Positions 5,675 through 12,332 of a stretch of 38,189 nucleotides of DNA are shown here, piece after piece; position 1 is the first letter of the stretch; each line of letters opens with the position of its first letter. The stretch lies in contig JADLHM010000023.1 of the NCBI GenBank assembly GCA_020848745.1, positions 1-38,189 on the forward strand, given 5' to 3'. A program made the position numbers and the translations under genes. This DNA is from Deltaproteobacteria bacterium (GTDB lineage: Bacteria > Desulfobacterota > Binatia > UTPRO1). A model generated the notes under the pieces. It worked only from the letters and a program-made list of their open reading frames with translations. It had not been told where the DNA came from and made no database searches.

Positions 5675-5748
5675 GCAACGCCTCCGGAGGTGGGGTGCGA
5701 GCAGACTTCTCTGCCGCAAGCGCCGCTGTCAACCCTCGTTGCGCGCGC

Positions 5749-5933
5749 GGTAGTGGGTCAGTTCGATGGGGGGCGACGCGGGACGAAGCCGATCCGTCTT
5801 CGTCGCCGGCCCGGCGCGCCCGAACTCGCTCGCTCCGCTCGCTCAAACAGCGGGCGCGCTGATCGGGCCGGCTCCTCGCCGGATGCCTCGGCTCTCGTCC
5901 CGACGTCGCCCCCCATCGAACTGACCCACTACC
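5749..5933. mobile_element. Palindromic MITE-like element, copy 1 (185 bp)
   Basis: The ends are inverted repeats of 38 and 39 nt starting GGTAGTGGGTCAGTTCGATG (5749-5786 and 5895-5933). They pair perfectly except for a one-base bulge. The element is flanked by 8-bp direct repeats GCGCGCGC (5741-5748 and 5934-5941), consistent with a target-site duplication. The centre is 73 bp longer than in copy 2 (extra segment 5810-5882, bounded by CGCCGG repeats). That extra segment builds a nested stem: GCCGGCCCG/CGGGCCGGC (5805-5813 and 5864-5872), then GCGCGCCCG/CGGGCGCGC (5814-5822 and 5851-5859). There is no transposase. It could be mobilised in trans by an IS that makes 8-bp duplications. The open frame through it is not a gene. 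Confidence 0.8.
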
Positions 5934-6024
5934 GCGCGCGCCGACGGGGCGGACGACGCGGCTCACGCCATGGCGTCGGCGCACGTTGGTTGCCCTCGCC
6001 TACCACCATTGTTATGCGAGCCGC

Positions 6025-6912: not shown

Positions 6913-8112
6913 TCAGCGCGGGATCACGCCGGCCGCGCGGAGCGCCGCGAGCGCGGCGTCGTCGATGCCCGCCTCGCGCAGCACCGCCTCGGTGTCCCCG
7001 CCGAGCGCGGGCGCCGGACGACGCGGGGCGCGCGGCGCGCCGCCGAAGCCGACCGGGCTCGCGACCGCGCGCTGCGTCCCGCCGTCACGGGTCGGCACGT
7101 CGACGAAGGCACCGGCGGCGAGCATCTGCGGATCGGCGGCCACCTCGTCGAGCGACTGCACCGGCGCCCACCAGACGCCCTCGCGATCGAAGCGCTCGGC
7201 CCACTCGGCGAGCGGCCGCGTCGCGAAGGTCCGATCGAGCTCCGCGATGAGCGCGCGGCATTCCCGCCGCCGCTCACGCGCGCTCGCGAAGCGCGGGTCG
7301 GCGAGCAGATCCTCACGCCCGACGCTCCGGGCGACGCCCGGGAAGTGGCGATCGGCCTCGAGCCCGATCAGCCAGAACCACCGGCCGCAGCCGGCGCGAT
7401 AGGAGTTCACGAGCGGCGTCTCGACCTCGGTGCGAGGCACGGGCGCCTTGATCTTCCCGAATGCGAGCTGGATGCCGAGATCCCACCCGAGGCAGTAGGC
7501 GCCCGTGCGCAGGAGCGAGGTCTCGACGACCCGCCCGCGTCCCGACCGCACCCGCTCCAGGAGCGCCGCGAGGATGCCCGCGACGGTCGCGAGCGCGGTC
7601 ACGTGGTCGCCGAAGCCGCCGCGGATCTGCGGCGGAGGCGCCCCATCCGGCGCCGGGGTCCGCGCGACGCCCGAGCGCGCCCAGAACGCGCCGACGTCGT
7701 AGCCGGGCCGGTCGCGCTCGGGACCGGTCTGGCCGTAGCCGGTGATGCCGGCGTACACGAGACGCGGGAAGCGCGCGGCGAGCGTCTCCGCGTCGAAGCC
7801 GAGGCGCGCGAGCGCGTCGGGCCGGAAGTTCGTCACGAAGACGTCCGCGGCGGCGAGGAGCCGGTACGCCGCGTCGCGGCCCGCGGTGTCGCGTACGTCG
7901 AGCACGACGCTCCGCTTACCGCGGTTGTCGAGATCGAAGGGCGGATTGCGGTCGACCTTGCTGCCGGTCGCGAGCCGGAAGAAGGCGCGCATCGGGTCGC
8001 CGGCGGGCGGCTCGATCTTCACGACGTCCGCGCCCCAGTCGGCGAGAATGCCGGCCGCGGCCGGCCCAGCGACCCACAGACCCATTTCGATGACGCGCGT
8101 TCCGTCGAGCAT
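6913..8112 (-). CDS. Family III CoA-transferase (CaiB/BaiF)
   Basis: A 399-aa member of the CaiB/BaiF (formyl-CoA transferase) family, enzymes that move CoA between carboxylic acids through an aspartyl-CoA anhydride. N-terminal LDGTRVIEMG...AGILADWGADVVKIEPP is diagnostic. The RPGYDVGAFWARSG segment near residue 135 carries the expected catalytic aspartate, and LVYAGITGYGQTG precedes it. Length is normal. ATG at 8112 has GGAGG 6 bp upstream (minus strand). The substrate is unknown. It is convergent with the secreted protein gene, and MITE copy 2 begins 64 bp beyond its start codon. Confidence 0.92.
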   Translation of the reverse strand: MLDGTRVIEMGLWVAGPAAAGILADWGADVVKIEPPAGDPMRAFFRLATGSKVDRNPPFDLDNRGKRSVVLDVRDTAGRDAAYRLLAAADVFVTNFRPDALARLGFDAETLAARFPRLVYAGITGYGQTGPERDRPGYDVGAFWARSGVARTPAPDGAPPPQIRGGFGDHVTALATVAGILAALLERVRSGRGRVVETSLLRTGAYCLGWDLGIQLAFGKIKAPVPRTEVETPLVNSYRAGCGRWFWLIGLEADRHFPGVARSVGREDLLADPRFASARERRRECRALIAELDRTFATRPLAEWAERFDREGVWWAPVQSLDEVAADPQMLAAGAFVDVPTRDGGTQRAVASPVGFGGAPRAPRRPAPALGGDTEAVLREAGIDDAALAALRAAGVIPR

Positions 8113-8175
8113 GGTGGCCTCCGCGCGTGGACCCGACACCGATCGCGAGGGCGCGTCAAGCAGCACCGGCGGCGG

Positions 8176-8287
8176 GGTAGTGGGTCAGTTCGATGGGAGG
8201 CGACGCGGGACGAAGCCGATCCGTCTTCGTCGCCGGATGCCTCGGCTCTCGTCCCGACGTCGCCTCCCATCGAACTGACCCACTACC
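8176..8287. mobile_element. Palindromic MITE-like element, copy 2 (112 bp)
   Basis: Same terminal inverted repeats as copy 1 (left arm from GGTAGTGGGTCAGTTCGATG, right arm ending CTGACCCACTACC), in the same orientation. It is flanked by 8-bp direct repeats GGCGGCGG (8168-8175 and 8288-8295), a different target sequence from copy 1. The core AGCCGATCCG...CCTCGGCT is also partly self-complementary, so the whole element folds into one hairpin. It differs from copy 1 by lacking the 73-bp centre and by a matched change in both arms (GGGAGG with CCTCCC instead of GGGGGG with CCCCCC). It sits between the CoA-transferase start and the downstream side of the cysteine-rich gene. Confidence 0.82.
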
Positions 8288-8357
8288 GGCGGCGGAGGGG
8301 CGCTACGCGCGCACGCGCAGGGTTGGCCGTATCCGACACCCGGGCCCGAAATGCGAC

Positions 8358-8426: not shown

Positions 8427-9833
8427 TCAGTCGCGTTCGCAGTCCCGCATGCAGTGGCGGAAGAGCCGCTGCGCCTTCCTGTTCGCCCGCTCGGTCTTGG
8501 CGCCGCGCTCGAGCATGGCGCGGTACTTCGCGTTCACCGTGACCTCGCACTGCTCGCCGCAGGTCGGCGCGGGGGCGATGCCGCAGCCGTCGAGGCACGT
8601 ATCGAGGGCGGCCGTCGCCTCGGCGTCGCAGGTCGCCTCGTCGGTCCCGGCGGCGATGCACTGCGTCCGCTGCGCGGCGGCCGCGGCCTCGCAGTCGTTG
8701 GCGCACGTGTCCGGCGGGGGCGGCACGCAGCGCCTGGCGACGCACTCCTCGAGCACGCCGGCCCGCTTCTCGGCGCAGGCATCGGCGCCGCCGTCCTTCT
8801 TCAGACAACGCCGCTCGGCGCGCGCCGCCTTCTTGTCGCAGCGCTCCTCGCACGGAGGCGGCACGTCGCAGTGCATGGCGACGCAGCGCTCGAACACCTC
8901 GCGCGCGGCCGCCTTGCAGTCTTCCTCGGTGCCGCCCGCTTCGAGGCAGCGGCCGAGCGCGTCGCTCGCGTGGTCTTCGCAGCGCTCCTCGCACGACGGT
9001 TTCGGCGGCTCGCTGCCCTCGCAGTGCTCTTCGATGCAGTGGCGCGCCTTCTCCTCGACGCGCGCCTTGCACATCTCCTCGCTGCAGCCGTCCTCGATGC
9101 AGTCGTCGAGCTTCTCGCGCGCTTGGGCGGCGCACCGCTCGGGGCAGGTCGGCTCGGTCTCGGTGCACTGCTCGGCGATGCACGCCGCGCGCGCGACCTC
9201 GGCCGCCGCCACGCAGTCCTCCTGGGTGCCGCCGCCCGCAAGACACTCCTCGATCTGCGCCTCGGCGTTCGCCTGGCAGGTTTCCTCGCAGCTCGGCGCC
9301 GGCGCCGTGCAGCGCTCGTCGATGCACATCTGCAGCGCCTCGGCACGGAGCTGGCCGCAGAGGTCGGCGCTGTAGCCCTCCTCCAGGCAATGCGCCCGCG
9401 CCTCGTCGGCGCGGTGCTCGCACCGGTCCTCGCACGTGGGCTCGGGCTCCGGCTCGGGATCGTCGCACTCCTCCGCGATGCAGCGCGCGAGCTTCTCCTG
9501 CCGGAGCGCCGCGCAGTCCTCCTCGCCGCCGCCGTTCTCGAGGCACTGGTCGCGGTGGGCGTTGGCCGCGAGCTCGCACTGGTCGGGACACGACGGCTCG
9601 GGGGCCTCGCAGTGCTCGTCGATGCACGCGGCGACCGCCGCGACGGCGACCTCGACGCAGTCGGCCTCGCCGCCGCCTTCCTCGCGGCACGCCGCGAAGA
9701 CGGAGGCGCCGTGGCTCTCGCACTCGGCGACGCATGCGGGATCTTGATCGCCGCCGAAGGTCGCGCGGGCGGGCGATGCCGCCGCGACCATTCCGAGAGC
9801 GAGCGATGCGATGAAGAGTGCCATGGAGCGCAT
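8427..9833 (-). CDS. Secreted cysteine-repeat protein (nine repeats)
   Basis: A 468-aa protein with a signal peptide (residues 1-24, ending SPARA). The rest is nine tandem units of about 46-52 aa from residue 34 onward. Eight units share C-x3-C-x10-C-x9-C-x10-C-x4-C, with a GGGxxxD-type turn in the x9 segment and Pro/Glu/Asp-rich linkers (EAPEPS, DDPEPEPEPT, TAPAPS) between units. Unit 5 has one extra Cys, unit 8 has x3 at the end, and unit 9 has lost the third and fourth Cys and becomes basic (RANRKAQRLFRHC). Each unit is probably a helical hairpin held by three disulfides, giving a beads-on-a-string extracellular protein. The ATG at 9833 has a GAGGAGG 8 bp upstream. I do not recognise the family; adhesion, metal binding or matrix roles are possible. 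Confidence 0.9.
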   Translation of the reverse strand: MRSMALFIASLALGMVAAASPARATFGGDQDPACVAECESHGASVFAACREEGGGEADCVEVAVAAVAACIDEHCEAPEPSCPDQCELAANAHRDQCLENGGGEEDCAALRQEKLARCIAEECDDPEPEPEPTCEDRCEHRADEARAHCLEEGYSADLCGQLRAEALQMCIDERCTAPAPSCEETCQANAEAQIEECLAGGGTQEDCVAAAEVARAACIAEQCTETEPTCPERCAAQAREKLDDCIEDGCSEEMCKARVEEKARHCIEEHCEGSEPPKPSCEERCEDHASDALGRCLEAGGTEEDCKAAAREVFERCVAMHCDVPPPCEERCDKKAARAERRCLKKDGGADACAEKRAGVLEECVARRCVPPPPDTCANDCEAAAAAQRTQCIAAGTDEATCDAEATAALDTCLDGCGIAPAPTCGEQCEVTVNAKYRAMLERGAKTERANRKAQRLFRHCMRDCERD

Positions 9834-9992
9834 GGGGGATCCTCCTCGAGAGCTCGGCCGAAGCCGTGAATTCGCGATCGACCGAAGGAGCAAGGGGCGT
9901 GCCCCCCGCGAACGGCCGGCGGCGCCGCGATTTGCCGACGCTCGCCGCCCGGGGGGTCGGGGCCGACCACGCAGACGCGCGTCGACCGCGTG

Positions 9993-10037: not shown

Positions 10038-10133
10038 TGCGCGACACGTGACGCTCCTCTACCTTGACGCCAACTCGCATGGCGCGTTCGTCGGATCACA
10101 CGACCCACGGCACGAGCCGCTGACACCGGGCGC

Positions 10134-12332
10134 ATGCAACGGGTCTTCGGAGCTCGCAGCGCGTGGACCCTGGCCGGCGAGCGCCAGGTGCCGATCAGGC
10201 GCGACCAACATGGCGTGCCGCACGTCTACGCGCAGGCCGAGGCCGACCTCTATCGCGGCATCGGCAACTGCCACGGCACCGACCGCGCCCTGCAGATGCT
10301 GCTCCTGCGCATCGTCGGCCAGGGGCGCGCCGCGGAGGTCCTCGACGGCAGCGACGACATGCTGCGCCTCGACCGCTTCTTCCGCCGGCTGAACCTCGCC
10401 GCGGGCGCCGACGAGGAGCTCGCGAAAGCGTCGCCCGAGCACCGCGCGCTCGCCCTCGCGTACTGCGAGGGCGTGAACGAGGCGCTCGCGGAGCGTACGC
10501 CATGGGAGCTCCGGCTCGTCGGCCACCGGCCGCTCCCATGGACGATGGCCGACCTCGTCCTGACCTCGCGCGTCGTCGGCTTCATCGGGCTCGCGCAGTC
10601 GCAAGGCGACATGGAGCACCTGCTCGTGGAGATGGTGCAGGCGGGGATCCCGCGCGCGCATCTCGACGAGCTCTTCCCGGGCCAGCTCGCCGGCCTCGAC
10701 CTCGACCTGATCGCCCGTGTCACGCTCGGCGAACGGCTCGTCCCCGAGACGCTGCGCTGGGCGAACGTGCTGCCGCGCGCGGTCGCGTCCAACAACTGGG
10801 TGCTCGCGCCGAAGAAGACCAGGAGCGGCCGGGCGCTCCTCGCCAACGACCCGCACCTCGAGGTGAACCGCCTGCCGAACGTCTGGTACGAGATCGTCGT
10901 CGAGCTCGGCGAGCGCTTCTGCGTCGCCGCCACCATGCCGGGCCTGCCGTCGCTGCTGCTCGGGCGCACCAACGACCTCGCGTGGGGTGCGACCTACACC
11001 TTCCTCGACGGCATCGACTCGTGGATCGAGGACTGCCGCGACGGCCGCTACCGACGCGCCAGGAAGGGGCGCGACCGCTGGGTGCCCTTCCGCACCCGCG
11101 CCGAGACGATCCGCCGCAAGGGTAAGCCCGCGGTGACCATCACGTTCCACGAGAACGACCACGGCGTGCTCGACGGGGACCCGAGCGTACCGGGCCTCTA
11201 CCTCGCGACGCGCTGGGCCTCGGGAAGCGGCACCGGCGCCGCGTCGCTGGCCGCGTCGTTCGCGATGCTGACGGCGCCCGACGTCGCCGCCGGCATGGAG
11301 CAGCTCGGCCGGCTCGAGCCGTCCTTCAACTGGGTGCTCGCCGACCGCCACGGCAACATCGGCTACCAGATGTCGGGCCGCATGCCGGTGCGGCGCGCGG
11401 GCTGGAGCGGGCTCGGTCCCGTCCCCGGCTGGGATCCCGAGAACGACTGGCAGGGCTTCGTCGCGCCGGAGGACCTGCCGCGCGCCTACAACCCGGAAGC
11501 GGGCTTCATCGCGACCGCGAACGACGACTTGAACCACCTCGGCAAGGCCCGCCCGATCAACCTGCCGATGGGGCCGTACCGCGCCGAGCGGATCGCCGCG
11601 CTCCTCGCGGCGCGCGACGACTGGACGCCCGCGGACGTCGCCGCGATGCAGATGGACGTGCTCTCGCCGCACGCCGAGCGCTTCCTGGCGATCCTCCGCC
11701 CGCTCCTGCCCGTCACGCCCGCCGCCGACGTCCTGCGCTCCTGGGACTGCCGCTACGACCCGGCGTCGGTCGGCGCGACGCTGTTCGAGCGCTTCTACCG
11801 CGGACTCGTGCGCGAGGTGTTCGGCGCCGTCTGCGGCGCCGAGGTCATGCGACACCTCGCCGGCGAGACCGCGATCCTCGCCGATTTCTACTACAACCTC
11901 GACCGCGTGCTCCTCGCGGAGACGAGCGTCTGGTTCGGCGGGGAGACCCGCGACGCGATCTACGCGCGGGTGATCGCGCGCTCGCTCGACGGACCGCTCA
12001 CGACCTGGGGCAGCGAACAGCAGGTGATGATGAAGCACCTCGCGCTCGGCGGCCGGCTGCCGGTCTGGGCCGGGTTCGACCGCGGCCCGATCCCGCTCCG
12101 CGGCAACCGCGCCACGATCCACCAGGGGCAGGTCTACCGCTCGGGCGGTCGGGTCACGAGCTTCGCGCCGTCCTACCGGATGGTGACCGACTTCGCCGAG
12201 ACCTGCACGCACACGAGCCTCGCCGGCGGTCCGTCGGACCGCCGCTTCTCGCCGTGGTACACGTCGGAGGTGGACGATTGGCTCGCGGGGCACTTCAAGA
12301 CGCTGCGCCCGGGCCCGGCGCTCCCCCGATGA
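10134..12332 (+). CDS. Penicillin acylase family N-terminal-nucleophile hydrolase
   Basis: A 732-aa member of the penicillin G acylase/quorum-lactone acylase family, which hydrolyses amide bonds after autocatalytic cleavage to alpha and beta chains. The N-terminal region has VPIRRDQHGVPHVYAQAEAD and GNCHGTDRALQM, typical of the alpha chain. The predicted nucleophile is Ser219 in AVASNNWVLAPKKTRSG, followed by LLANDPHLEV of the beta chain. FNWVLADRHGNIGYQMSGR is a further family signature. Length fits. No convincing signal peptide is seen at the chosen ATG, unusual for this normally periplasmic family. The gene overlaps the next by 4 bp (ATGA at 12329-12332). Substrate unknown: an acyl-homoserine lactone, N-acyl amino acid or other amide. 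Confidence 0.92.
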   Translation: MQRVFGARSAWTLAGERQVPIRRDQHGVPHVYAQAEADLYRGIGNCHGTDRALQMLLLRIVGQGRAAEVLDGSDDMLRLDRFFRRLNLAAGADEELAKASPEHRALALAYCEGVNEALAERTPWELRLVGHRPLPWTMADLVLTSRVVGFIGLAQSQGDMEHLLVEMVQAGIPRAHLDELFPGQLAGLDLDLIARVTLGERLVPETLRWANVLPRAVASNNWVLAPKKTRSGRALLANDPHLEVNRLPNVWYEIVVELGERFCVAATMPGLPSLLLGRTNDLAWGATYTFLDGIDSWIEDCRDGRYRRARKGRDRWVPFRTRAETIRRKGKPAVTITFHENDHGVLDGDPSVPGLYLATRWASGSGTGAASLAASFAMLTAPDVAAGMEQLGRLEPSFNWVLADRHGNIGYQMSGRMPVRRAGWSGLGPVPGWDPENDWQGFVAPEDLPRAYNPEAGFIATANDDLNHLGKARPINLPMGPYRAERIAALLAARDDWTPADVAAMQMDVLSPHAERFLAILRPLLPVTPAADVLRSWDCRYDPASVGATLFERFYRGLVREVFGAVCGAEVMRHLAGETAILADFYYNLDRVLLAETSVWFGGETRDAIYARVIARSLDGPLTTWGSEQQVMMKHLALGGRLPVWAGFDRGPIPLRGNRATIHQGQVYRSGGRVTSFAPSYRMVTDFAETCTHTSLAGGPSDRRFSPWYTSEVDDWLAGHFKTLRPGPALPR

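What the first reader, a model, noticed from the sequence alone, without database searches (positions are those of the whole stretch)
8427..9833. A secreted protein built from nine C-x3-C-x10-C-x9-C-x10-C-x4-C repeats
Cysteine spacing is nearly invariant over eight units while other residues vary, with Pro/Glu linkers between. The last unit has lost its central cysteines and turned basic. I know no named family with this spacing. It could be a disulfide-rich rod, a metal scavenger or an adhesive coat protein.
Basis: partly seen in the sequence, partly recalled or inferred. Interest (0 to 1): 0.7.

Follow-up and report, generated by a model that had tools for sequence, protein, structure and literature searches.

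The report
Secreted string of disulfide-stapled helical hairpins
An uncultured soil and groundwater bacterium encodes a secreted protein made of eight small helix-turn-helix beads, each probably held by three disulfide bonds, plus a basic end bead; it belongs to no family in the libraries searched, and a stable multi-bead scaffold outside the cytoplasm is its most likely role.

Summary
The minus-strand gene 8427-9833 encodes 468 aa: a signal peptide, eight units C-x3-C-x10-C-x9-C-x10-C-x3/4-C, and a basic ninth unit lacking C3 and C4. None of 100,000 shuffles gave more than one unit. The gene is real (GC3 0.94, ribosome-binding site, dN/dS 0.13-0.24, all 53 mature cysteines kept in the sister species). 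Pfam, NCBIfam and PDB sequence searches give no significant hit for protein or unit. Orthologues with 8-10 units and the same cap occur only in some genomes of one class of 'Deltaproteobacteria' MAGs (unit profile in 13 of 148; none outside the class in a 395-genome phylum sample). No cysteine is lost singly in about 100 units; C3 and C4 vanish together in all caps; one unit gained a symmetric extra pair. AlphaFold2 gives one helical hairpin per unit (pLDDT 94.5 for two units). With an Ala/Cys interface stripe and a VKOR-DsbA system in the genome, nested C1-C6, C2-C5, C3-C4 disulfides fit best; a metal scavenger is unlikely. Units keep position-specific identity; neighbours are not conserved. 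Best reading: a secreted beads-on-a-string scaffold, built like plant modular alpha-hairpinin precursors but not a member. Structure is fairly secure; function is inferred.

The parts
9841..9847 (-). ribosome-binding site GAGGAGG
   Evidence: sequence
9762..9833 (-). signal peptide (residues 1-24, ARA|T; no lipobox)
   Evidence: sequence; all 11 relatives also start with a hydrophobic N-terminus
9609..9734 (-). hairpin unit 1 (residues 34-75)
9465..9590 (-). hairpin unit 2 (residues 82-123)
9309..9434 (-). hairpin unit 3 (residues 134-175)
9165..9290 (-). hairpin unit 4 (residues 182-223)
9021..9146 (-). hairpin unit 5 (residues 230-271), with a seventh, unpaired Cys in the loop
   Evidence: also in the sister species L026
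8868..8993 (-). hairpin unit 6 (residues 281-322)
   Evidence: AlphaFold2 model
8727..8852 (-). hairpin unit 7 (residues 328-369)
   Evidence: AlphaFold2 model
8583..8705 (-). hairpin unit 8 (residues 377-417), ends C-x3-C
8430..8561 (-). C-terminal cap: divergent four-Cys unit with a basic second helix (residues 425-468)

Best explanation
A Sec-exported protein that, once outside the cytoplasm, is oxidised (probably by the VKOR/DsbA system) so that each 42-residue unit becomes an antiparallel helical hairpin stapled by three nested disulfides (C1-C6 and C2-C5 at the base, C3-C4 near the tip). Eight hairpins are strung on short Pro/acidic linkers as beads on a string and end in a two-disulfide basic cap. 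The array most likely acts as a very stable extracytoplasmic multivalent scaffold or spacer: each hairpin shows its own conserved surface, and the cap may anchor the chain or make it assemble. Shown by sequence: repeats, signal sequence, paired loss of C3 and C4, position-specific conservation, purifying selection. Predicted: hairpin fold (about 0.85 likely). Inferred: disulfide pairing (about 0.8), location, scaffold role and cap role (about 0.4-0.5).
For: Units and spacing. AlphaFold2: pLDDT 82.9 for the full protein without an alignment and 94.5 for units 6-7 with 32 rows; helices run C1..C3 and C4..C6. Unit 6 cysteines 281/322, 285/317, 296/306 sum to 603, 602, 602, i.e. symmetric about the turn; C2-x10-C3 and C4-x10-C5 are constant in every unit, even where the turn grows to x13. 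C3 and C4 are lost together in all caps while C1, C2, C5, C6 stay. Unit 2 of L031 gained one Cys on each side of the turn at matching positions. Helix face C1, C2, Ala/Gly/Ser (97%), hydrophobic, C3 faces C4, small (79%), Ala/Val, C5. Mature proteins of most relatives have an even Cys count. VKOR and DsbA domains sit in one 427-aa frame, with several more DsbA-like genes. Unit-to-unit identity by position 0.295 against 0.206 (sd 0.006) when shuffled, 0 of 2000. dN 0.05-0.06, dS 0.24-0.39.
Against: No experiment; model coordinates were not readable, so Cys-Cys distances were not measured. The window protein and its sister have an odd count of mature cysteines (53), and the G060 relative has 55, so at least one thiol is unpaired or makes an intermolecular bond. 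Nothing in the neighbourhood names a partner: synteny is lost outside the genus. The relative in G060 lacks the cap, so the cap is not needed in all. The inter-bead arrangement is not confidently predicted.
Confidence: 0.55

Rival explanations
1. Polyprotein precursor: the linkers are cut outside the cell and each hairpin is released as a separate stable peptide (toxin, inhibitor or signal), as in plant modular alpha-hairpinin precursors.
For: Same layout as the second type of plant precursor: signal peptide, 5-12 hairpin modules, short C-terminal domain (PMC7191063; PMC11591084). Units have diverged from each other but keep position-specific identity, as a set of different peptides would.
Against: Strongly acidic (net -53), unlike cationic antimicrobial peptides. 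No adjacent immunity gene, transporter or dedicated protease is conserved. Linkers such as EPEPEPT hold no dibasic or other obvious uniform cleavage site.
Confidence: 0.15
2. Surface coat or adhesin: the chain polymerises or sheathes the cell, with the basic cap binding acidic surface polymers and the odd loop cysteine of unit 5 cross-linking chains.
For: Conserved basic cap; odd seventh Cys kept in both species of the genus; cysteine-bearing helical repeats are found in the filament-sheathing CagY protein of Helicobacter (PMC2581425).
Against: No anchor, lipobox, transmembrane segment or sorting signal was seen; the cap profile is found only in this family and one fusion, not as a general surface tag; the odd Cys is absent from the other families' relatives apart from a different one in G060.
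Confidence: 0.2
3. Metal scavenger: cysteines bind Cu(I) or Zn as thiolates, as in copper storage proteins.
For: About 12% Cys; C1, C2, C5 and C6 cluster at the hairpin base and survive in the cap.
Against: Exported in a genome with an oxidation pathway; pairwise loss and gain of cysteines; no Pfam hit; few Met and His; no conserved metal-handling neighbour.
Confidence: 0.08

Closest known systems
Plant modular alpha-hairpinin precursors (MBP-1, EcAMP, MiAMP2, Tk-AMP-X)
   Same: Signal peptide, up to 12 Cys-stapled helix-loop-helix modules in tandem, short C-terminal domain; variable module number
   Different: Plant Cys motif is C-x3-C-xn-C-x3-C (or the six-Cys C-x3-C-x3-C-xn-C-x3-C-x3-C); here 3,10,9,10,4 with longer helices; bacterial; acidic
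Mitochondrial CHCH / twin CX9C proteins (best, non-significant PDB profile hit, NDUA8)
   Same: Disulfide-stapled antiparallel helical hairpin
   Different: Twin CX9C with two disulfides against CX10C/CX10C plus base cysteines; not tandem arrays of eight; E 0.36 only
Helicobacter CagY repeat region and Hcp (Sel1-like) proteins
   Same: Secreted bacterial tandem helical repeats with regularly placed cysteines
   Different: CagY A motif 38-39 aa and Hcp 36-aa alpha/alpha repeat; different Cys layout; no Pfam match
Saposin-like domains (from memory)
   Same: Six cysteines with nested 1-6, 2-5, 3-4 disulfides
   Different: About 80 aa and 4-5 helices against 42 aa and 2 helices

Membership tests
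alpha-hairpinin | Cys motif C-x3-C-xn-C-x3-C, or C-x3-C-x3-C-xn-C-x3-C-x3-C | tested here: not met
   The six-Cys units have 3,10,9-13,10,3-5; only the cap, C-x3-C-x31-C-x3-C, formally fits the 4C form
alpha-hairpinin | helix-loop-helix module | tested here: met
   AlphaFold2, pLDDT 94.5; prediction only
alpha-hairpinin | disulfides C1-C4 and C2-C3 (nested) | not testable with these tools
   nesting inferred from symmetry and paired loss, no chemistry
alpha-hairpinin | cationic antimicrobial or inhibitor activity | tested here: inconclusive
   net charge -53 speaks against; activity untested
CHCH / twin CX9C | two CX9C motifs, one per helix | tested here: not met
   each helix carries CX10C in every unit; no CHCH Pfam hit
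CHCH / twin CX9C | fold | tested here: inconclusive
   Foldseek and VIA list only generic hairpins
CagY repeat | sequence match to the family's Pfam model | tested here: not met
   no Pfam-A family at E<=10 for the window protein
Sel1-like / Hcp | 36-residue disulfide-bridged alpha/alpha repeat, Sel1 profile | tested here: not met
   42-residue unit plus linker; no Pfam hit
Copper storage protein (Csp, four-helix bundle) | profile match | tested here: not met
   no Pfam hit
Copper storage protein (Csp, four-helix bundle) | binds many Cu(I) through free thiols | not testable with these tools
   needs protein
Saposin-like | about 80 aa, 4-5 helices | tested here: not met
   two helices in 42 aa

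The most novel reading that the evidence does not exclude
A bacterial counterpart of the plant alpha-hairpinin cassette: an undescribed class of three-disulfide helical-hairpin modules that arose independently in one lineage of uncultured bacteria, serving either as a set of secreted peptides or as a multivalent scaffold.
Probability: 0.4. Interest if true: 0.6.

Novelty: new variant of a known kind. Interest (0 to 1): 0.5.

Why it matters
It adds an unlisted small disulfide-rich module, possibly one of the simplest (two helices, three staples), in tandem arrays of 8-10. It would be a ready test case for disulfide formation by VKOR-DsbA fusions with more than 20 disulfides in one chain, for convergence with plant hairpin precursors, and a stable scaffold for protein engineering.

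Tried and rejected
Known-family assignment: Pfam, NCBIfam, PDB sequence searches by protein, full-length profile and unit profile: nothing significant. Fold search with the full and two-unit models: generic helical hairpins only (best Z 6.7, rmsd 1.8 over 43 residues). Viral origin: no relative in IMG/VR. Operon partner: no conserved neighbours beyond the genus. Cap as a general C-terminal sorting tag: found only in this family and one fusion. Recent repeat expansion: rejected, units keep position-specific identity and the DNA shows no tandem array of unit length. Weak unit hits in G035 and G063 lie inside unrelated ~760-800-aa proteins and were taken as chance. The name of the bacterial class could not be established; I suspect Binatia or a related lineage but did not test it.

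Full report
OBSERVATION. The minus-strand ORF 8427-9833 encodes 468 residues: a signal peptide ending ARA|T, eight units with cysteine spacing 3,10,9,10,4 (unit 8: last spacing 3; unit 5: one extra Cys in the turn), and a ninth, basic unit with four cysteines. A GAGGAGG site precedes the ATG. Shuffling the mature protein 100,000 times gave one unit 154 times and never two. The frame has GC3 0.94, and against the sister-species orthologue (89% identity) dN is 0.05-0.06 and dS 0.24-0.39, with 53 of 53 mature cysteines kept.

FAMILY AND DISTRIBUTION. The gene is single copy in its genome. Among 98 relatives searched, orthologues were found in the same family (G001, G003 with two copies, G004, G005), in a second family (G017, G024, G031, G044, G051) and a distant one in a third (G060). 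Weak hits in G063 and G095 were not confirmed as members. A profile of 61 diverse units finds the module in 13 of 148 genomes of the class, two of them (G035, G063) by single weak hits inside unrelated proteins; in a sample of 395 phylum genomes only the already known G000 and G003 match. A scan of 84,980 species found seven loci, all in records titled 'Deltaproteobacteria' MAG, though that scan rests on two short peptide patterns and missed known relatives. Complete copies have 8, 9 or 10 full units followed by the cap; G060 has nine and no cap. The G017 copy is split between two frames.

STRUCTURE. All six cysteines are invariant in 61 aligned units. C2-x10-C3 and C4-x10-C5 never vary; only the turn (x9-x13) and the last spacing (x3-x5) do. 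AlphaFold2 models every unit as one helical hairpin, full length pLDDT 82.9 from the single sequence and pTM 0.29, and units 6-7 with 32 rows pLDDT 94.5 and pTM 0.54. Within a hairpin the cysteines lie at mirror positions (unit 6: 281/322, 285/317, 296/306). The faces that would touch carry Cys, Cys, small residue (97% A/G/S), hydrophobic, Cys on helix 1 and Cys, small (79%), Ala/Val, Cys on helix 2. C3 and C4 are missing together in every cap, and L031 unit 2 gained two cysteines at mirrored places beside the turn. These facts point to nested disulfides; they do not prove them. The genome encodes a VKOR domain and a DsbA domain in one 427-aa frame plus several further DsbA-like genes, so oxidative folding outside the cytoplasm is available.

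EVOLUTION AND CONTEXT. Units at the same place counted from the C-terminus are more alike between proteins of different genomes (0.295 over helix positions without Cys) than shuffled units (0.206, sd 0.006; 0 of 2000). The array is therefore old, and each bead is under its own constraint. Neighbours in the window (a CoA-transferase family III gene 6916-8184 and a penicillin-amidase family gene 10068-12329) are kept only within the genus; no adjacent gene is shared with relatives of other genera in the compared 7-20 kb, apart from a distant gene shared by the two g3 genomes. One genome, G005, has a second protein in which a signal peptide, one hairpin unit, a Cys-rich linker and a cap-like unit precede a ~370-aa domain without Pfam match, which suggests that hairpin plus cap can serve as an N-terminal module of another protein.

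MECHANISM. The best-supported reading is a secreted beads-on-a-string scaffold of disulfide-stapled hairpins with a basic cap that may anchor or assemble it. The closest rival in architecture is a precursor cut into peptides, as plant alpha-hairpinin precursors are (signal peptide, 5-12 modules, short C-terminal domain; PMC7191063; PMC11591084). The acidity of the chain and the lack of immunity or protease neighbours lower, but do not exclude, this. A coat or adhesin role and a metal-thiolate role are less supported.

KNOWN KINDS. It works like a disulfide-stapled hairpin repeat (alpha-hairpinins, CHCH proteins, and in a looser sense CagY and Hcp repeats; PMC2581425). It fails the defining Cys spacing of alpha-hairpinins and of twin CX9C proteins, and no profile places it in any family. 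Fold searches are inconclusive because a single hairpin is generic. I therefore call it a new variant of a known kind, undescribed in the libraries at hand.

Noticed in passing
window 8172-8288 and 5745-5937: Palindromic repeat element (perfect 30-nt arms GGTAGTGGGTCAGTTCGATGGGAGGCGACG 52 nt apart at 8176-8287); copies or parts at about six places on five contigs of the genome. Looks like a MITE- or REP-like element; one copy lies just 3' of the repeat gene.
   Followed up: partly
L082 5806-7374 (-) (G005:C99): 523-aa secreted protein: one hairpin unit, Cys-rich linker, cap-like basic unit, then a ~370-aa domain with no Pfam match at E<=1; by eye its Cys/His/Asp motifs recall transglutaminase-like enzymes, not tested.
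   Followed up: partly
L033 1564-4753 (G017:C277): Orthologue split between two reading frames (781-aa and 554-aa frames): frameshift or assembly error.
   Followed up: no
L035 8882-9934 (G051:C129): Next gene downstream of the orthologue is another secreted Cys-rich protein with a different Cys pattern.
   Followed up: no
L084 44-739 (G051:C236): Secreted Cys-rich protein with one weak unit-like stretch (E 2.4e-4) after a Thr/Ser-rich linker; possible distant relative.
   Followed up: no
L027 and L028 (G003): One genome holds two paralogues, one very acidic (net -80, 10 units) and one nearly neutral (net -6, 9 units).
   Followed up: no
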